In this document: positions 34,268 to 44,800 of the stretch, in pieces | Position numbering within the stretch: the stretch's first letter is position 1 | Layout: each line of letters opens with the position of its first letter | NCBI GenBank assembly: GCA_030272155.1 | Contig: CP126191.1 | Location: 5,664,501-5,728,500 of the forward strand | Direction: 5' to 3' | DNA length: 64,000 bases | Origin: Tetradesmus obliquus | Taxonomy: Eukaryota > Chlorophyta > Chlorophyceae > Sphaeropleales > Scenedesmaceae | The notes under the pieces: generated by a model | Seen by the model: the letters and a program-made list of their open reading frames with translations, nothing else | Told to the model about the DNA's origin: nothing | Databases searched by the model: none | Made by a program: the position numbers and the translations under genes

Positions 34268-36232
34268 CGTCTGAACCCCACCAAAACACGTTTACTGCAT
34301 ATAGGGCAGCAGCCAGAACAGGCAGCTGCGCCAAGGGGGGCAGCACCAGCGTTAGGAGATCTGCAGGTGGTGGCCAAGGCAAAATCCCTAGGCGTGTTCT
34401 TTGACCAGCATGGCAAGAGCAGTGTGAACTGGGATGGTAGGATGGAGAATGTGCGGCACCGCATGCAGAACATCAGCCGCATCTCCAAACTATCGGCTTT
34501 TGGTAGGGCTTTCGCTGCTAATGCTTATGCTTTATCCACCTTACTGTATGCAGCCCAGTTTGCTGGTCATTTGCCTGCTGAGGTTACCAGTAAACTGAGC
34601 ACATGGACAGCAGCACTGATTGATGCTGGCCTAGGTCCTGAAGATGACCTTCGCAGGACCCCGGGTATCCCTGGGGATTGCATGGCAGCACACCCCACGC
34701 GTGGGGGTTTTGGATTGTTGCCGGTCCACCATCATCTGTTTTCGCGGTGGGCTTGTGAAGCATTGCCGTTCCTGCAAGGCAGTACTGTGCCTTGGGTGGC
34801 AGTTGCACGGCAGTTGTGGCATTGTTGGGCTGCCAATACAGACTTGTTCATGCGTACCACTGGTAGCAGCCCTTGGGGTTTGCTGTTGTGTGGCCGTCAA
34901 TACTTATTCCCTTCTGCTCCTGCGGATGTGTGCCTTCCCTCTGCACTACGTGCGTTTGCCGTAGGGTTACGGGCTCTGCCCCCGCTGCGGCACGTTGGTA
35001 CAGCACCTTTGGATGTGGCAGAGCTGTGTTGGCATGCGCCGCTGTGGAGCAATCCCATTTTCACTGCACCACAGGTTTGGGAGTGGTTTGGTCAGCAGCG
35101 GACGGTTGCTGTTGGTCTTGAAAATGTGGTTGCCTGTGGCCTTCTGCAGCTGCCAAAACTGCAGACTCTGGGTCAGGCAATGATGCTTTCTTCTGAATTG
35201 GAGCGAGTGTGTACGATGCCAGGACTCCCAGCCCGACGTGCAGCATATGAACGTGAGATATGGGGTCCGTGGTTGAGCAGCAAGCCGCAGTATGCTGACA
35301 GGCAAACAGCCTGTGACCATGTGCAAGCATTGCTAACACTCGTTCCACAACAATGGGTTGTTGCAGCACGTGCTCATCTGACTGCGGCTTATGCTGCTGC
35401 TGAAAGCACAGCGCAGCTATCCACAGTTTCAAATCATGACATTTTGATTACGCGAGAGGCGTTGTGCACTGAGTTGGGCTGGCAGCACCCAGGCGGTGAT
35501 GCTGCCAGAGTTGTACGTTTGCGTGCCCTGACTGTTGCTGTTGCAACTCAGCTGCAGCGTCTTTCTGCACATGATGCAATTGCTCCTCGACACGCTGCCT
35601 TTTTGGACAGTGTTAGAACATTGGACAGCCTGCCTGTAGGAACACAGCTGCCTGCTGTGCAGCTGGTTTTGAGTCGGTGGTGGCGGGTTAGGGTTGCTAA
35701 CACCTACAAGGAGGCAGCTTGGCGCCTGGCCTTCAATGCCTTCCCAACTGCGCAGCGAATGCAGCTGGCGACGGGTTGTGCAGCATGTTCAGCAGTGGGG
35801 CCAGGCGTGGAGCATCACTTTTGGACATGTCCAGTAGCTGTTGCTGTACGTGAGGAAGTGACAAGTCAACTTAGGGCTTGCCATATGTTGGCAGCAGGTG
35901 AAAGTCTGCCATGTAGAGCACTGTGGTTGGCATGTACCCCTCACCATGATGTACACCGACTGATATGGGACATGGTCTGTATAGCAGCTATACATGCATT
36001 TGAGCATGGTCGCCGGGTGGCATGGGCAGTGTCCCACAGACTAAACGTGCCTGTGCTTGTGGAGCAAGTAGCAGTACGAGCGGCAGTTGGCATTTTTTGG
36101 GATGTACTTGCTGATTTTGCTGCTACAGCTAGGGTACCTAGTCGTTACAAAAACCACCTGCTGACACGACAGCCGTTTATTGCTTGGCACACTGTGTTAC
36201 GTGGCAATGGCTTACGTGTGATCCGCAGATGA
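34268..36232 (+). mobile_element. 5'-truncated LINE ORF2 fragment, copy B (RT thumb to C-terminus)
   Basis: One intronless open frame of about 654 codons ending at TGA 36230-36232. It enters at the end of the reverse-transcriptase palm (LNPTKTRLLHIGQQ), then AKAKSLGVFFDQH and ISKLSAFGRAFAANAYALST, the thumb pattern of LINE ORF2. It ends in a zinc knuckle, CAACSAVGPGVEHHFWTCPV, and FWDVLADFAA. The endonuclease and catalytic RT motifs would lie upstream and are absent, so this is a 5'-truncated insertion. Because the frame is still fully open, the insertion is probably young or the segment is under some constraint. No poly-A or short tandem tail was clear at the 3' end. Confidence 0.8.
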
Positions 36233-36714: not shown

Positions 36715-36726
36715 ACCGCATGACCA
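36715..36726 (+). repeat. Candidate target-site duplication, left copy
   Basis: ACCGCATGACCA at 36715-36726 recurs exactly at 40220-40231, directly bounding the Penelope-like array on both sides. Bases beyond the repeat differ. Confidence 0.55.
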
Positions 36727-36802
36727 TTGTAAACAAGCAAGTGGTTGTCAGCGACCCAGGCAGCGGTACGTAAGGAGCCTTAGACGAACGTGAAGTCCTT
36801 AA

Positions 36803-36854
36803 CAAGGATGACTAGTGCCGAGTTTCGGCTTTTGACAGCCTCATCAGATCCTGC
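36803..36854 (-). ncRNA. Hammerhead ribozyme, copy 1 (long stem III)
   Basis: Read on the minus strand: helix I strand GCAGGAT, core CTGATGA, stem II GGCT/AGCC closed by GTCAAA, core GAA, stem III, then GTC with the cleavage point (plus 36810|36809), and helix I return ATCCTTG. All invariant hammerhead core bases are present, in type I topology. Stem III here is ACT/AGT (3 bp) around a CGGCACT loop, 7 nt longer than in the other copies. Confidence 0.8.
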
Positions 36855-37047
36855 GTAGACCACATGCGTGTAAGGCTAGATGTAAGTGCTCACGAACGAG
36901 CAGTACAGCTGACAATGACACTGACAGTGCCAGCTGTACGTGTACTGCCTCTGGCAGTGAAAGTACGATGCTGCCATGTGATGTGATCATGCATGGCAAG
37001 CAGCATGCAAGCATAATAAATGCAAGCAAATGCAAGGCACTTAAACT

Positions 37048-37977
37048 TCAGTGCCGCGCACGAATCAGGCGCGATGCAATGGATTTGTTTTTGGTGTAGG
37101 CAACTACAACACGTGCTGCAGGGCCCCCAAATATCCGTGACACCTCTGGGTGATGTTTGTACTGCGCATACACGCGGTTCAGCACCACACCAATACGTGC
37201 TCTCATCTCAAACTGCCCATTAGGCAAGACAAGCACTGGGGCATCACCTCTACGCTGCTGCCGTCTGCCTGGCGGGCGGCTGAGCAGTGCAGTGCGGCAT
37301 GAATGATCCACAGCAGCAAACCAGCTTTGCAGCTGGCGTGCTGGGTAACCTCTGTCCAACAGCCTGTTCATGAACAGAGTTTTCATGCGTTGAAAGTCAC
37401 CAGGCAGTGTATTAGTAACAGCATAACGCTGCAGTTCTGCCTTGATGAAACCCTTGTACATGCCTGGCCTGTGAAATGAGTGCCAAGGAATATACATGTA
37501 GTGGTTGTGGGGCTTTTGGTATGTTGTAACCTTAAAACCCACTGAGGGACTAGCAGAGTCCATGCACTTGCTGATAGTGATGTCCATATAATCTATGCTG
37601 GTCTGGCTGACTTGCCAAGTCAGCCGTATGTTGGGCAGTGTGCTGTTGAGTGCTTGCAGGAACAGCAAAAGGCTGGCATAATCCTGCTCCACACAAAAAA
37701 GCCATCATCTATACAGCGTTTATAGATTGCAGGCCAGTAGGCACTCTGCTGCTGTACCACAGCTTCTAGCTTGGCAGCAATGTAAATGTTGCTGTATGGA
37801 GGAGCAACAGGGGTGCCCATGACGGTACCCTGCACCTGCCTGTAGTAACTGCCACCAAATTGGCAGTAACCATGCTTCATCACAAGGTCAGCAGTTGTAA
37901 ACAAGCAAGTGGTTGTCAGCGACCCAGGCAGCGGTACGTAAGGAGCCTTAGACGAACGTGAAGTCCTTAACAAGGAT
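37048..37977 (-). pseudogene. Penelope-like RT fragment, longest copy, frameshifted
   Basis: Minus-strand RT C-terminal half, starting right after the copy-2 ribozyme cleavage point with the frame LRTSRSSKAPYVPLPGSL. It contains FGGSYYRQVQGTVMGTPVAP and the catalytic block KRCIDDGFFVW. Just after GFFVW (near plus 37690-37695) the frame shifts by one base into EQDYASLLLFLQALNSTLP, so the coding sequence is broken. The rest runs to TAA/TGA at about 37048 and ends SIASRLIRARH. The N-terminal RT and any endonuclease are absent. Confidence 0.75.
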
Positions 37978-38015
37978 GACTAGTTTCGGCTTTTGACAGC
38001 CTCATCAGATCCTGC
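37971..38015 (-). ncRNA. Hammerhead ribozyme, copy 2 (minimal stem III)
   Basis: Same fold as copy 1 with core CTGATGA, stem II GGCT/AGCC, GAA, then ACTAGTC where stem III is only A-U and C-G closed by a TA dinucleotide. Cleavage point predicted at plus 37978|37977. Helix I pairs AGGAT with ATCCT. Confidence 0.78.
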
Positions 38016-38208
38016 GTAGACCACATGCGTGTAAGGCTAGATGTAAGTGCTCACGAACGAGCAGTACTGCTGACAATGACACTGACAGTGCCAGCTGTAC
38101 GTGTACTGCCTCTGGCAGTGAAAGTACGATGCTGCCATGTGATGTGATCATGCATGGCAAGCAGCATGCAAGCATAATAAATGCAAGCAAATGCAAGGCA
38201 CTTAAACT

Positions 38209-38846
38209 TCAGTGCCGCGCACGAATCAGGCGCGATGCAATGGATTTGTTTTTGGTGTAGGCAACTACAACACGTGCTGCAGGGCCCCCAAATATCCGTG
38301 ACACCTCTGGGTGATGTTTGTACTGCGCATACACGCGGTTCAGCACCACACCAATACGTGCTGTCATCTCAAACTGCCCATTAGGCAAGACAAGCACTGG
38401 GGCATCACCTCTACGCTGCTGCCGTCTGCCTGGCGGGCGGCTGAGCAGTGCAGTGCGGCATGAATGATCCACAGCAGCAAACCAGCTTTGCAGCTGGCGT
38501 GCTGGGTAACCTCTGTCCAACAGCCTGTTCATGAACAGAGTTTTCATGCGTTGAAAGTCACCAGGCAGTGTATTAGTAACAGCATAACGCTGCAGTTCTG
38601 CCTTGATGAAACCCTTGTACATGCCTGGCCTGCGAAATGAGTGCCAAGGAATATACATGCGGTGGGGTTTTTGGTATGTTGTAACTTTAAAACCCACTGA
38701 GGGACCAGCAGTTGTAAACAAGCAAGTGGTTGTCAGCGACCCAGGCAGCGGTACGTAAGGCCATTGTAAACAAGCAAGTGGTTGTCAGCGACCCAGGCAG
38801 CGGTACGTAAGGAGCCTTAGACGAACGTGAAGTCCTTAACAAGGAT
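38209..38846 (-). pseudogene. Internally deleted Penelope-like RT fragment, unit 2
   Basis: The same element as the longest copy but lacking 344 bp. The segment from after CLFTTA to before SVGFKV is missing, and the two sides join in frame as TTAGPSVGFKV. About 170 codons stay open to RLIRARH. The catalytic IDD motif is in the deleted part, so no active RT can be made. Confidence 0.75.
38712..38815 (-). repeat. 52-bp local tandem duplication inside unit 2/3
   Basis: The segment starting TTGTAAACAAGCAAGTGG at 38712 is repeated at 38764. The same duplication is present in the next unit (39581 and 39633), showing it arose before unit amplification. Confidence 0.8.
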
Positions 38847-38884
38847 GACTAGTTTCGGCTTTTGACAGCCTCATCAGATCCTGC
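38840..38884 (-). ncRNA. Hammerhead ribozyme, copy 3 (minimal stem III)
   Basis: Identical over the core to copy 2, 869 bp further along. Cleavage point predicted at plus 38847|38846. Confidence 0.78.
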
Positions 38885-39077
38885 GTAGACCACATGCGTG
38901 TAAGGCTAGATGTAAGTGCTCACGAACGAGCAGTACAGCTGACAATGACACTGACAGTGCCAGCTGTACGTGTACTGCCTCTGGCAGTGAAAGTACGATG
39001 CTGCCATGTGATGTGATCATGCATGGCAAGCAGCATGCAAGCATAATAAATGCAAGCAAATGCAAGGCACTTAAACT

Positions 39078-39715
39078 TCAGTGCCGCGCACGAATCAGGC
39101 GCGATGCAATGGATTTGTTTTTGGTGTAGGCAACTACAACACGTGCTGCAGGGCCCCCAAATATCCGTGACACCTCTGGGTGATGTTTGTACTGCGCATA
39201 CACGCGGTTCAGCACCACACCAATACGTGCTCTCATCTCAAACTGCCCATTAGGCAAGACAAGCACTGGGGCATCACCTCTACGCTGCTGCCGTCTGCCT
39301 GGCGGGCGGCTGAGCAGTGCAGTGCGGCATGAATGATCCACAGCAGCAAACCAGCTTTGCAGCTGGCGTGCTGGGTAACCTCTGTCCAACAGCCTGTTCA
39401 TGAACAGAGTTTTCATGCGTTGAAAGTCACCAGGCAGTGTATTAGTAACAGCATAACGCTGCAGTTCTGCCTTGATGAAACCCTTGTACATGCCTGGCCT
39501 GCGAAATGAGTGCCAAGGAATATACATGCGGTGGGGTTTTTGGTATGTTGTAACTTTAAAACCCACTGAGGGACCAGCAGTTGTAAACAAGCAAGTGGTT
39601 GTCAGCGACCCAGGCAGCGGTACGTAAGGCCATTGTAAACAAGCAAGTGGTTGTCAGCGACCCAGGCAGCGGTACGTAAGGAGCCTTAGACGAACGTGAA
39701 GTCCTTAACAAGGAT
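39078..39715 (-). pseudogene. Internally deleted Penelope-like RT fragment, unit 3
   Basis: Near-identical to unit 2, with the same deletion joint and 52-bp duplication and the open 170-codon C-terminal frame. One visible coding difference is MRARIG here versus MTARIG in unit 2. Confidence 0.75.
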
Positions 39716-39753
39716 GACTAGTTTCGGCTTTTGACAGCCTCATCAGATCCTGC
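39709..39753 (-). ncRNA. Hammerhead ribozyme, copy 4 (minimal stem III)
   Basis: Identical over the core to copies 2 and 3. Cleavage point predicted at plus 39716|39715. It belongs to the outermost, 5'-truncated repeat. Confidence 0.78.
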
Positions 39754-39946
39754 GTAGACCACATGCGTGTAAGGCTAGATGTAAGTGCTCACGAACGAGC
39801 AGTACAGCTGACAATGACACTGACAGTGCCAGCTGTACGTGTACTGCCTCTGGCAGTGAAAGTACGATGCTGCCATGTGATGTGATCATGCATGGCAAGC
39901 AGCATGCAAGCATGGTAGATGCAAGCAAATGCAAGGCACTTAAACT

Positions 39947-40181
39947 TCAGTGCCGCGCGCAAATCAGGCGCGATGCAATGGATTTGTTTTTGGTGTAGGC
40001 AACTACAACACGTGCTGCAGGGCCCCCAAATATCCGTGACACCTCTGGGTGATGTTTGTACTGCGCATACACGCGGTTCAGCACCACACCAATACGTGCT
40101 CTCATCTCAAACTGCCCATTAGGCAAGACAAGCACTGGGGCATCACCTCTACGCTGCTGCCGTCTGCCTGGCGGGCGGCTG
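39947..40181 (-). pseudogene. Truncated Penelope-like RT end, outermost repeat
   Basis: Only the last 75 or so codons of the RT remain, matching the other copies up to plus 40181, where homology stops within the RPPGRRQQRRGD region. A short unrelated stretch then runs to the right-hand direct repeat at 40220. Confidence 0.7.
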
Positions 40182-40219
40182 TACAAGCCCCTGTACAATT
40201 CACCCTATCTTCTTCTTCT

Positions 40220-40231
40220 ACCGCATGACCA
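40220..40231 (+). repeat. Candidate target-site duplication, right copy
   Basis: ACCGCATGACCA, identical to 36715-36726, immediately right of the array. Confidence 0.55.
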
Positions 40232-41035
40232 GCAAAGTCGTCTGGCATGCAGGCGTACTGAACCTGTTAGCAGTACACCCCTGTGCTGAACAACAGCAAT
40301 GCTTAGTGCACATTGCAGGTACACAGCTCTGCTCTCTAGCAAACATTTGCACAGTTGAAGAGTACCCTTGGTCTTCGCTTCAAAGTACCAATGGTCTTTG
40401 AAGCAAAGGATTAGCCAGTGTTATCAGCATATGACAAGTATCACAACCGGCACCTTGCACTGGCTGTGAGCAAGGCTGACGCAGCACGCACACACATGCT
40501 GGACCTAGAGCCCTCAGTTGACCAGACATCGATGCAACATAATGATGGCTGTGTGATGCGCCAAGTGCACGTCATACAAAACAGCGCCCAGAAGCCAATG
40601 ACAATCCCTGGCGAGCACCGCACGCATGGCGAAAGTGCACACCACACCTATGCACCCAACTGGCATGTCAGTTTGAGACGAGGTGAAAACATCACTAACA
40701 TGCGCCAAAGATCCCATTCCTATGTCACTGTCACCTGGTTACACCCGCTGCGGAGCTTGCAGCAAAGCGTGCTGTGTGCGCCAGCGCTGATGTCTGTCAC
40801 ACGGAGGCAATGCTGCCACACATCATGCGCAGGCGCACATATAGCTCTCGCTTGGCTGACCAGTGGCGGCAGCGGAAGATGCTGATGCCGTACCCATAAC
40901 CAGAACGAGTTTTCATGACGCCATTCGGAGCAGCCACACACACCTCTGCCAGAGTTCAGTGCTGCTTCCAATCCAGCCGCTGGAGCAGCTGCAGCGGCCT
41001 GCCTCCTTGTTCACTGAAGCAGCCGGTGCAGCAGC
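40232..41035. other. Intergenic region between transposon array and kinase gene
   Basis: About 800 bp. An open frame at 40418-40885 has no family features and is not called. Plus TTACA at 40739-40743 (minus TGTAA) could end the kinase transcript 293 nt after its stop. Confidence 0.45.
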
Positions 41036-41828
41036 TCACCGCTCCGGCCTCATGGCATCCAGCTGAGCGATGATGTCGCTGAAGGTGGGCCTGCAGGCGC
41101 ATGTACACAGCGCAGCAGCAGCAGGCAACAGCGATAAGGAGAAGGTTGACGGTATAACATGATCCATGACCTTGTCTGCCGAATGCCATACCCTGTTTCT
41201 CTACTCCTAGCAATAGCTGCAGCACAGGTGAAGCAGGAGCCACAGCAGCACAGCACGTACAGCATAAGCAAGCGCACTACAGTGCCACTCACCTGCCCTT
41301 GGGGTCCCTAGCCAAGCACGCAGACACCAGCTGTGCGAAAGCCGGTGGTGCAGTGCCAGGTAGCACTAGCACCTTGCCAGTGCTGACGCTGTGCAGCACC
41401 TGGCTGTGAGACATGCCAGGGTACGGTGAGCGCCCAGTAAACATCTCCCACAGCACCACGCCAAAGCTGCACAACAATGGCAGCGCAGTCGCAGGCAAAC
41501 AGCATAACTAGAACAGTGTAACGAGCGTGGATAATTCATTATTGTGTACATGAGCACAACACTGAGCAGTGCATGCATAGCGCAAGCCACTGATGGCACC
41601 ACATACTATGCTGTAGTACAGCTGCATACATGCAGCCCTCCCTGCCGCAACTGCAGCTACAGATGTTCGCTTCAGCCAGCTTGCTCCTCACCTGTACACG
41701 TCTGCCGCCTTGCTCATCTTGCCCTCGATGAGCAGCTCTGCAGGCATGTGTGTGACCGTGCCGTAGGTGCGAGTCTGGATCACAGGCGCCTCGTTGCTCA
41801 CCAGCCGCGACAGCCCAAAGTCGGAGAT

Positions 41829-41872
<44 letters not shown>

Positions 41873-44800
41873 TCAGTTTGGCGCTGAGCTGCAGCATGTG
41901 ACTGATGGTGACTGGTGGGTCAGAGGAAACCATGCTCTGCCAACGGCGGTGCCCCGCCCCTGCTGCTCAACAAGCTGCTATAGCCTGCAGCCTTCAAACA
42001 GCCCAACCAAGACTTGACTGCCTGCTGGGCCGCACCTTGGCAACAAAGCCGCGCTTGTCGTCAGCCGTCACAGTCAGCAGCACGTTGTTGCCTGTCAGGT
42101 CCCCGTGCAGGATGTTCTTGCTGTGCAAGTACGACAGCGCCCCAGCCATCTCACGCGCAGTAGCCTGCAAGCACAGCAGCAGCGGCAGCAGCAGGAAGAT
42201 GGGCGGTTAGCAGAAGCAACTCTTGGCCCCATCAGAGTCCCTTGCAATACATTGTGGCTAAACATGGCTCATGCTGAAGCAGGCGCTGACCTACATCAAC
42301 AGGCCAACTGCCAGTGTTGCGCCAGGCGCGCATGGCACGCAGCGAACTCGCTGGACCAGCGCCATGCGCCGCCTCACCACGACAGTGTCCATGTCTGCCT
42401 CCATGCTGTCCTTGCGCCTGAACCAGCCCTTGCTGATGGCGTCAGCCACGCAGCCGCGGTTGCAGAACTCCAGCACCAGCCTGCAGGCAACCACGGCACA
42501 CATGCACACACTCACACCAGCATCGTGGTTGCTCAGCAGCAAGCTTGTAGTACTGAGCATGATAGAGTGAGCATGAGCTCAAGCAGGCCCCGTCAGCCGC
42601 CAGCCGCCACAACTGGCATGGCTGCTGGTGTGCAGCCCACAGCCAGCACCGCACTGCTGCAGCATACAGGACAGGTTGCTGCTGTGCCATGTGCATCGCC
42701 TGCCCCAGCAGCCCAGCCAACACAACCCACGCACCACGTCTCCAGCATCTGCTCCCTGCTCCTGCTGCTGGGCAGGCCATTGGCACTGAGCAGCGACCCA
42801 TCATCCTCGCCCTCATCCTCCTCATCCAGGCCAGCCATGGGCAGCGGCCGCGTGACGTGCTTGTACGTGCGCACCTGCAGATGTGGAGCAAGGTCAGCAG
42901 CTGGTGATTGGACGGTGAACAGTGGACGCATACAGCCGGCATTCTTCCACGCTCGTGCATGCTGATAATAATAGGCAGACAAACACAGTCCGTTGCTGCC
43001 AGTCCCCATCTGCTTTTATGTTTTACCATGCGGTGTGCGGCCTTCATAAGCTGCTGAGGTGTGCTGTGGCGGGCTGCCCACACTGCCCCGTCACTCACCA
43101 CGTGCGGGTGCTGCACCTGCTCGCTCAGCAGGCCCTCCAGCAGGCAGCCGTCCTCATGTTGCTGCTGCGAGTACTCCAGCACCTTGACGGCCACCATCTT
43201 GCCGTTCCACATGCCTGCCAGCAGCAGCAGCAGCAGCACGGCATCAGAGGTAGTGCAAACCCCAAAAGCAACTCTTGACGTGTCTACGCAACAATGTGAT
43301 GTTGGTGCAATGCAGGTAGGGTGTGGTAGCTGCCTTGCAGCCCCAATTTCCCTACTTGAAACCCTGCCTCAGTGCACGCAAGACCTGCGCCACGCTGCAG
43401 TTGGCTCGGCAAGGCACGGCAATGCATGCAGGCGCCGCACCTCTGTACACGCGTCCAAAGGCGCCCTTGCCCAGCAGCGGCCCCAGCTTGATGTCTTGGA
43501 AAGGCCCGTCAGTCGCCATCAGGCTGAAACTAGCCATTTTCCGCACAGGGCGCCTTGCGACAGCAGCGCTGCCGGCCGCACTGCCGCTAGCTGCACTGCT
43601 GCCTGCTGCGCTGCCGCTGCTGGTCCGCTGCGCCTGCTGCTGTTGCTGCTGCTGTTGCTGCGGCGAGGGCACCGGCTTCAGCGCCACAAAGTAGAAGGCG
43701 CGGTTGCCCTCTGCCGTGCTGGGCAGGAAGTTGGGGATGCCGATCAGCGGCATGTGCTGGTCCAGCCCAGTGGTGGCGGCGCAGCGGAACTGCGCCATGG
43801 CGTACTGCAGCACCTGGCCTGAGGAGAGGCTGCTGCGGGAGTTGAGGGAGTTGGACTGCGCCTGGGCCGCTGCAGCGTCCTCTGAGCTCTGAGGGGTGAA
43901 GTACGTGATCATGAGCTCAAACTGCAAAACGCAGGAAGCACCAGAAGGGAGTGATCAGCAGCTGTGCAGTGTCAATTACCTGCAGCCCCAACCTTTGCTG
44001 AACTGCTGTTGCTTAAGAGCAGCCGCAGAAAACAGCAGCAGACAAGGCATACATCATACGACTAGCGGGCCGAAAGCTATAGGGTGCGGCTACAACATGC
44101 CACGTTGCCAAGGACTTGCAGCAGAGATACAACAGCCGAGCAGAGCTCACGTTCTCCTGCTTTGCAATTGCGTCTGCATAGTCCTGCCCGTGGTCCGTGG
44201 GCCCTAGGGAGCCAGGCGCAGGCGGCTGCGCGCAGCAGCAGCACAGCAGCAGCAAATTTGTCAGGCAAGCAGTAGTGTGACGAGCTGGATGCATGCATTT
44301 AAGAAACCAGCTGCAGCACCTGCACCAAGCAAGGGTGCAGCTCAGCCTCTGCGACACCGGTGCCAGTGAGCCTCGGGCCACCACACCAGGAAGTGCACAC
44401 TTCTGCAAAGTAGTCACTTACAACCTGCAGCCTCATAACAACGCACGGTGCTGTGGTGCACATATTGTGGCAGCCCTCATCTGGCCGCAGCAGCTCTCAC
44501 TTCCAGTAGCAGCCTTCCCGCCACAACGCCCTCACCTTAAACACACTCCAGAATCCTAGCCCTTCCATGCGCTTCTGCCCCACCACGCTCTCCCATGCCT
44601 CATTGGCAAACACGATGTTCCAGTCGTCACCAGAGGTGTCCACCAGCATGATGGCCTCACTGCAGCACACAGCACAGGCAGGCAGCAGCGCCGCGTGCAC
44701 GTGCTGATGTCAGCAGCGGCTCTCGACCAAGACTTCCTGCAAGCTCACAAGCTTGCAAACCTCTCCCCTTTGATACCCACGTCTGTGTGCCATCAGCTCG

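What the first reader, a model, noticed from the sequence alone, without database searches (positions are those of the whole stretch)
36727..40219. Four hammerhead ribozymes in a tandem Penelope-like retroelement array
Each repeat carries, on the minus strand, CTGATGA, a GGCT/AGCC stem II, GAA, a short stem III, GTC and a helix I closing AGGAT with ATCCT. All invariant hammerhead core bases are present at four places with identical spacing to the RT fragments. Hammerheads in the terminal repeats of Penelope-like elements are established; this lineage-specific tandem array, with ribozymes positioned at unit boundaries, is a concrete self-processing system.
Basis: partly seen in the sequence, partly recalled or inferred. 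Interest (0 to 1): 0.85.

Follow-up and report, generated by a model that had tools for sequence, protein, structure and literature searches.

The report
Hammerhead ribozymes in Penelope-like retroelement array
Four copies of a small self-cutting RNA motif, the hammerhead, sit in a head-to-tail array of broken Penelope-like retroelements in what looks like an algal genome; the motif is real and of a known kind, and whether it cuts in the cell is still unknown.

Summary
A core-plus-stems scan finds exactly four hammerheads in the window, all minus strand, and none in 100 shuffled windows. Each lies 200 nt after the stop codon of a Penelope-like reverse-transcriptase (RT) fragment; no GIY-YIG endonuclease was found in the parts searched. 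A second family in the same genome, 34-41% identical in RT, has a hammerhead 221 nt after its stop with all five helix I pairs changed on both sides. Corrections: no Rfam hit at gathering score (19.9 against 48.5 bits); three copies have only ACUAGU in place of helix III, and the fourth has a 7-nt insertion there and folds otherwise; cut-to-cut distances are 869, 869 and 1168 nt. The array is bracketed by a 12-bp target-site duplication and lies in a duplicated region. Hammerheads in Penelope-like elements are known: a new member. Short copies begin near the cut site more often than a uniform spread predicts (6 of 24, P 0.004, window widened afterwards), mostly 1-4 nt upstream, which fits RT stalling on uncut RNA better than cut templates; this evidence is weak.

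The parts
36715..36726 (.). Target-site duplication, left copy ACCGCATGACCA, directly against the PLE 3' end
   Evidence: 12-nt exact match, 0 of about 300 control stretches as long
40220..40231 (.). Target-site duplication, right copy
40182..40219 (-). 38-nt non-PLE filler between the array's 5' end and the target-site duplication
39633..40181 (-). Unit 4: 5'-truncated PLE copy (RT C-terminus, 3' UTR, hammerhead, 3' end TTTACAA)
38764..39632 (-). Unit 3 (869 nt): TGG, a 49-nt PLE 3'-end piece (39581-39629), then RT fragment, UTR, hammerhead
   Evidence: differs from unit 2 at 2 of 869 positions
37895..38763 (-). Unit 2 (869 nt): as unit 3, 49-nt piece at 38712-38760
36727..37894 (-). Unit 1 (1168 nt): longer RT fragment in two overlapping frames, UTR, hammerhead with stem III insertion
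39711..39751 (-). Minimal type I hammerhead 4; predicted cut between 39716 and 39715
   Evidence: coordinates (model built from this family)
38842..38882 (-). Minimal type I hammerhead 3; predicted cut between 38847 and 38846
   Evidence: coordinates
37973..38013 (-). Minimal type I hammerhead 2; predicted cut between 37978 and 37977
   Evidence: coordinates
36805..36852 (-). Hammerhead 1, 7-nt insertion in stem III; predicted cut between 36810 and 36809; best fold is not the hammerhead
   Evidence: coordinates
37048..37704 (-). PLE RT C-terminal reading frame of unit 1 (overlaps 37620-37979 in another frame, which carries the upstream RT part)
38209..38784 (-). RT C-terminal reading frame of unit 2 (stop to stop)
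39078..39653 (-). RT C-terminal reading frame of unit 3 (stop to stop)
39947..40181 (-). RT C-terminal piece of unit 4

Best explanation
A tandem insertion of 5'-truncated copies of a Penelope-like retroelement in which no GIY-YIG endonuclease was found. Its terminal repeat (pLTR) carries a minimal type I hammerhead in the sense RNA, 200 nt after the RT stop, with the cut site 83 nt before the copy's 3' end. Shown: core and stems, a compensated hammerhead in a second PLE family, fixed 3' ends (TTTACAA, which in the one full-length copy seen is directly followed by the ATG of the reading frame), and a 12-bp target-site duplication around the whole array. Inferred: RT starts repeatedly at that fixed internal site and changes template at broken 5' ends, so several truncated units are laid head to tail in one insertion; the two near-identical 869-nt units then arose by DNA duplication. 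Inferred: the ribozyme cuts multi-unit transcripts as a pair of ribozymes that share helix III through the self-complementary ACUAGU, giving 5'-OH ends at AUCCUUG. The four window copies are probably remnants, not working parts of a live element.
For: Hammerhead: exactly 4 sites in the window, 0 in 100 shuffles. Second family, RT 34-41% identical, hammerhead 221 nt after its stop; such a motif in 0 of 5000 shuffles of its 800-nt downstream stretch, given strand. Covariation on 6 sequences: 6 of 9 pairs changed on both sides against 2.0 in shuffles, 3 of 500 as high; helix I 5 of 5. PLE: RT motifs VTFDVESMYPSI, GTPVAPPYSNIYI, FIDDGFFVW read in L007 (assignment of these motifs to PLEs is recalled); 64 homologues, of which P0050 (28% identity over 99% of the query) has RVT_1 plus a C-terminal GIY-YIG, the usual PLE layout. 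No GIY-YIG in P0002, P0003, P0007, P0009, P0022, P0028 at E up to 0.01 (some may lack their N-terminus), nor among the matches shown for four N-terminal pieces of the full-length copy. pLTR-ORF-pLTR at C8:5008872-5011491. Array: target-site duplication, fixed 3' ends. Pairing: ACUAGU duplex -4.8 kcal/mol; family 2's AUGCGU is also self-complementary, -3.9.
Against: No cleavage data. Rfam at gathering: nothing in the window or in the genome, and family 2's motif is not called a hammerhead by Rfam even relaxed. Folding: the monomer's best fold keeps helices I and II but pairs core bases (-11.0 against -9.3 kcal/mol for the hammerhead without stem III), and z-scores are near zero. In one search helix II pairs in only 75% of cells, the number of pair types is no higher than in shuffles (275 of 500), and the two-sided changes come from the one family 2 row; its helix II pairs fully only if one A is bulged. 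Short-copy 5' ends mostly lie 1-4 nt upstream of the predicted cut, which a cut template could not give. Template jumping is not separated from repeated insertion or expansion at the DNA level. In the one full-length copy the 3' hammerhead has lost G12.
Confidence: 0.82

Rival explanations
1. The motif no longer works as a cutter; it acts as a stable fold on which RT stalls, or is a decaying relic.
For: 6 of 24 scored short-copy 5' ends fall at q80-87 around the cut site, four of them 1-4 nt upstream of it; another 5 fall at the ribozyme's 5' edge, q46-49; 6 of 28 aligned variants lost catalytic G12, in each case consistent with a change at a CpG. In the Anolis PLE, hammerhead mutants did not affect insertion in vitro and no RNA-seq read ends at the cut site were found (PMC11167929, passages).
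Against: All four window copies keep every core base; a diverged family keeps compensated helix I pairs, which a mere relic would not. Loss of G12 in dead copies is expected.
Confidence: 0.3
2. Short copies are reverse transcripts of ribozyme-cut RNA: RT starts at TTTACAA and runs off at the cut 83 nt away.
For: Excess of 5' ends at q80-87, P 0.004 against a uniform spread.
Against: L048 begins at q82 and L047 at q83 or up to 2 nt earlier, both fixed by target-site duplications; by alignment L050 begins at q83 and L074 at q80, where short matches may be chance. All four hold bases that a cut template lacks. Allowing for the choice of window, the cluster is not exceptional (P 0.43 for 7 nt, 0.17 for 8 nt).
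Confidence: 0.12
3. Retrozyme-like array: non-autonomous tandem repeats moved through circular RNA.
For: Tandem hammerhead units; a 225-bp hammerhead unit is repeated three times at the start of contig C16.
Against: Window units carry PLE RT sequence, and their fixed 3' ends and truncated 5' ends fit the parent PLE.
Confidence: 0.07
4. Chance resemblance to a hammerhead.
For: No Rfam hit at gathering; the loose core pattern is common in this genome, 619 matches against 248 for the reversed control.
Against: 0 of 100 shuffles once stems are required, compensated second family.
Confidence: 0.02

Closest known systems
Minimal type I hammerheads of Penelope-like elements (Cervera and de la Pena 2014; Lunse et al. 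2017; both seen only as cited in PMC7761336 and PMC6155905, passages)
   Same: Hammerhead in the pseudo-LTR, tandem copies, helix III nearly absent, probable need for paired (dimeric) action
   Different: Here in what looks like a green alga; no difference in kind found
Terminons (Arkhipova et al. 2017, seen only as cited) and endonuclease-deficient Athena elements (PMC3846280, passages)
   Same: PLE RT without endonuclease as far as searched; one copy here has telomere repeats joined to its truncated 5' end (C16)
   Different: Most copies found here are internal, several with target-site duplications; no giant multi-gene structure was looked for
Poseidon element of Anolis (PAc; PMC11167929, passages)
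   Same: pLTR-ORF layout, internal start of reverse transcription, hammerhead
   Different: PAc has GIY-YIG, and its hammerhead overlaps the start of the reading frame; here copies end just before the ATG and the cut site is 83 nt upstream of that end
Metazoan retrozymes (PMC7229834, passages)
   Same: Tandem type I hammerheads
   Different: Retrozymes are non-autonomous repeats; window units carry RT fragments

Membership tests
Hammerhead ribozyme, minimal type I | Core CUGANGA, GAA, and U-H at the cut site | tested here: met
   intact in 4 of 4 window copies
Hammerhead ribozyme, minimal type I | Helices I and II conserved by compensation | tested here: met
   helix I 5 of 5 pairs changed on both sides, 96.7% of cells paired; helix II weaker, 1 of 4 pairs changed on both sides, 75% paired; 6 sequences, two families
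Hammerhead ribozyme, minimal type I | Reaches Rfam's curated threshold | tested here: not met
   19.9 bits in the window (28.5 at best in the genome) against 48.5; this weakens filing under Rfam's families rather than the structural claim
Hammerhead ribozyme, minimal type I | Self-cleavage | not testable with these tools
   needs transcription in vitro
Penelope-like element | PLE-type RT | tested here: met
   RT motifs (their assignment is recalled); relative P0050 has RT plus GIY-YIG; no RT tree was built
Penelope-like element | Pseudo-LTRs and partial tandems | tested here: met
   pLTR-ORF-pLTR on C8; tandems
Endonuclease-deficient PLE | No GIY-YIG at either end | tested here: met
   none in 6 relatives nor in 4 N-terminal pieces; the poly-Q piece had 43 weak matches of which the best 25 are shown; the full-length copy has frame breaks, so its pieces were searched apart; not shown for an intact element
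Endonuclease-deficient PLE | Telomere association | tested here: inconclusive
   among the fetched loci only the C16 one holds telomere repeats; 38 listed insertions lean to chromosome arms (KS P 0.0099), 4 of 38 within 5% of an end
Retrozyme | Non-coding, circular RNA intermediate | tested here: not met
   window units carry RT reading frames; circular RNA not testable

The most novel reading that the evidence does not exclude
In this PLE the hammerhead serves reverse transcription as a folded but uncut structure: RT stalls at its catalytic junction and at its 5' edge, setting the 5' ends of short copies and limiting full-length copying. This would be a role for PLE hammerheads other than cleavage.
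Probability: 0.12. Interest if true: 0.62.

Novelty: new member of a known kind. Interest (0 to 1): 0.36.

Why it matters
The role of hammerheads in Penelope-like elements is called unknown in a review (PMC7761336, passage), and in Anolis the ribozyme was dispensable for insertion in vitro (PMC11167929, passages). A compact genome with two diverged families, both with compensated ribozymes, plus many short copies whose 5' ends can be read nearly to the base, offers a direct test: do insertions start at the cut site or beside it?

Tried and rejected
Rfam at gathering gave nothing. The relaxed search gave only sub-threshold hammerhead scores for family 1 and none for family 2. Folding energies are uninformative (z -0.25 to -0.93, four sequences). 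The loose core pattern over the genome gives 619 matches (259 + 360) against 248 (142 + 106) for the reversed pattern, first places only listed; the excess was not followed up. Search for relatives in viral contigs: one pattern match, none confirmed. Pfam named no RT domain in the window's RT fragments (0 families in two, one weak unrelated match in the third) nor any in the L007 fragment; the PLE assignment rests on homologues and motifs. Profile against solved structures: one weak RT hit, 8bgj. Model R1 was built from these sequences, so its scores are not independent evidence.

The idea that short copies are footprints of ribozyme cleavage was first attractive (5 of 23 ends at q81-87, P 0.009) and was weakened by junctions upstream of the bond and by equal clusters elsewhere. 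The list of ends was typed by hand; it leaves out ends upstream of q1, L051, tandem duplicates and the second C15 hit, and takes some ends from alignment edges (a few nt uncertain). L074 was added, where the window was widened to q80-87 after seeing its alignment (6 of 24, P 0.004). L075 was entered there at q122 before its alignment, which begins at q115, was seen (6 of 25, P 0.0043). Allowing the window to lie anywhere, P is 0.43 (7 nt) or 0.17 (8 nt) with 24 ends; 0.38 with 23. The probability of the novel case was lowered from 0.13 to 0.12.

Whether other algae carry this could not be tested: no metagenome scans were allowed. L059 and L060-L069 were fetched and not analysed on their own. 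Literature on green-algal PLEs: by title and abstract start, the listings (20 of 31 shown; 12 of 31 shown) held no paper on hammerheads in algal PLEs; none of those papers was read for this. Cervera 2014, Lunse 2017, Arkhipova 2017 and (recalled) Craig et al. 2021 on Chlamys elements were not read: look-ups failed for the first, second, third and fourth (by a recalled DOI). No claim of first report is made.
Full report
Observation. The loose core pattern has six matches in the window against 1.75 expected. Four of them, on the minus strand, also have helix I (AGGAU/AUCCU) and helix II (GGCU/AGCC); a scan that asks for both helices finds these four and nothing else, and nothing in 100 dinucleotide shuffles. 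The RT stop codon lies 200 nt upstream of CUGAUGA in all four, and the copy's 3' end TTTACAA is 83 nt downstream of the predicted cut. Rfam's models do not reach their gathering score anywhere in the window; relaxed, the four sites score 18.3-19.9 bits as RF00008. Over the whole genome RF00008 gave 32 matches at E up to 10 (68 of 12086 candidates scored), the best 28.5 bits, none over the cut-off; 7 of 14 control genomes also gave sub-threshold matches, so these scores alone prove little.

The four are not identical. Copies 2-4 have GAA-ACUAGU-C, i.e. no real helix III. Copy 1 has a 7-nt insertion there, and its best fold is a competing hairpin. Cut-to-cut distances are 869, 869 and 1168 nt.

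What carries them. The array is built from 5'-truncated pieces of one element. Longer copies elsewhere (C6, C9, C8) encode an RT with motifs that I recall as those of PLEs; 64 homologous proteins were found, the distant P0050 having RT plus a C-terminal GIY-YIG. No GIY-YIG was found in six closer relatives or in four pieces of the N-terminal part of the C8 copy (for the poly-Q piece 25 of 43 weak matches are shown). On C8:5008872-5011491 lies a pLTR-ORF-pLTR copy with a hammerhead motif in both pLTRs and the ATG directly after TTTACAA; its 3' hammerhead has lost G12.

Is the ribozyme conserved? A second PLE family at C8:1350054-1350946 (34-41% identity to the first) has CUGAUGA...CCCGAAAUGCGUC 221 nt after its stop, with helix I GAAGC/GCUUC. 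Shuffling its 800-nt downstream stretch gave such a motif in 0 of 5000. In an alignment of six sequences, 6 of 9 pairs have a change on both sides (shuffles 2.0, 3 of 500 as high), all five helix I pairs among them. Against this: the two-sided changes come from the one family 2 row, helix II pairs in only 75% of cells, and the count of pair types is ordinary (275 of 500 shuffles as high). Both families have a self-complementary hexamer in place of helix III (ACUAGU, AUGCGU), as paired action would need; two cases are few.

How the array arose. ACCGCATGACCA flanks 36727-40219 on both sides, 12 of 12 letters, directly at the PLE 3' end on one side and after a 38-nt non-PLE filler on the other. 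All four units end exactly at TTTACAA while their 5' ends differ. This fits an RT that starts at a fixed internal site and changes template; units 2 and 3 share even their 52-nt joint and differ at 2 of 869 positions, so at least one duplication at the DNA level is likely. The array lies in a duplicated region about 96 kb apart on C1 whose flank is 100% identical over the 1401 nt tested; the sister array has five hammerhead units against four. An assembly artefact is not excluded.

Other copies. 46 places match the 166-nt ribozyme region (a lower bound, 40 of 91 candidates scored). Of 29 insertions scanned for target-site duplications, six stand out against controls (0-2 of about 300 as long): window 12, L047 35, L048 9, L051 17, L030 26 and L038 10 nt; L044 has 36 nt but a weaker control (5 of about 300). 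The other 22 show nothing clear (L055 and L007, 7 and 10 of about 300, are borderline; L020 was scanned at an inner end of its array and is no fair test). At the start of contig C16, telomere repeats are fused to a truncated 5' end, followed by 225-bp hammerhead units, as described for endonuclease-deficient PLEs (PMC3846280, passages).

Does it cut? Positions q count along the 166-nt query, with the predicted cut between q83 and q84. Of 24 scored short copies, six begin at q80-87; P 0.004 for a uniform spread, but the window was widened to take in L074, another five begin at the ribozyme's 5' edge and three at q29-30, and with the window free to lie anywhere P is 0.43 (7 nt) or 0.17 (8 nt). 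The six ends lie at q80, q82, q83, q83, q85 and q87: four include bases upstream of the bond, which a cut RNA cannot supply; two of these (L047, L048) are fixed by target-site duplications, the other two by alignment only. I read this as weak evidence for RT stalling at an uncut ribozyme and no evidence for cleavage. Catalytic G12 is lost in 6 of 28 aligned variants, in each case consistent with change at a CpG.

Verdict. A sound observation of a known kind: minimal type I hammerheads in PLE pseudo-LTRs, here in an unnamed, probably algal host, with a useful internal control in the second family. Function remains open.

Noticed in passing
L071 (C4:1261680-1261860, minus) and L072 (C4:1258130-1258310, minus): Two motifs that read as canonical type III hammerheads unrelated to the PLE: CCCAGU-C, UUGGC...GCCAA (GCCGA in L072), CUGACGA, GUCC...GGAC, GAA, ACUGGG; 3.55 kb apart, same strand, alike upstream and different right after ACUGGGT. 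Sub-threshold in Rfam (21.4 and 19.8 bits); 4 matching places in the genome.
   Followed up: partly
L073 (C3:6318170-6318340): Same core and stem II as L071, but by eye no helix III partner upstream in the stretch held.
   Followed up: partly
C1:5605017-5611301 and window 36727-42400: Duplicated region about 96 kb apart, 100% identical over the 1401 nt tested; recent duplication or assembly artefact.
   Followed up: partly
L009 (C16:1-1712): Contig starts with CCCTAAA telomere repeats fused to a 5'-truncated PLE, then three 225-bp hammerhead repeats.
   Followed up: partly
L038, C10:4680474-4680668: The ribozyme's stem III region holds an internal duplication of part of the core (GCCGAAACUAUAG twice); a tRNA lies about 670 nt downstream of the copy.
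   Followed up: no
L035, L037, L038 5' flanks: Three PLE copies share a non-PLE 5' flank (TACACGGTGTGCACAGGCA and more), as if joined to the same other repeat.
   Followed up: no
window 34268-36232 (+): Long open frame (654 aa, stop to stop) that resembles the C-terminal part of a non-LTR retrotransposon by eye; L019's PLE seems to lie in a relative of it. No family search was run.
   Followed up: no
L070:3153-3302: Long inverted repeat just after the RT stop of the second PLE family (Rfam plant microRNA models match it below threshold).
   Followed up: no
G000, whole genome: The loose hammerhead core pattern is 2.5 times as frequent as its reversed control (619 against 248), probably more than the PLE copies seen here explain; only the first places were listed.
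   Followed up: no
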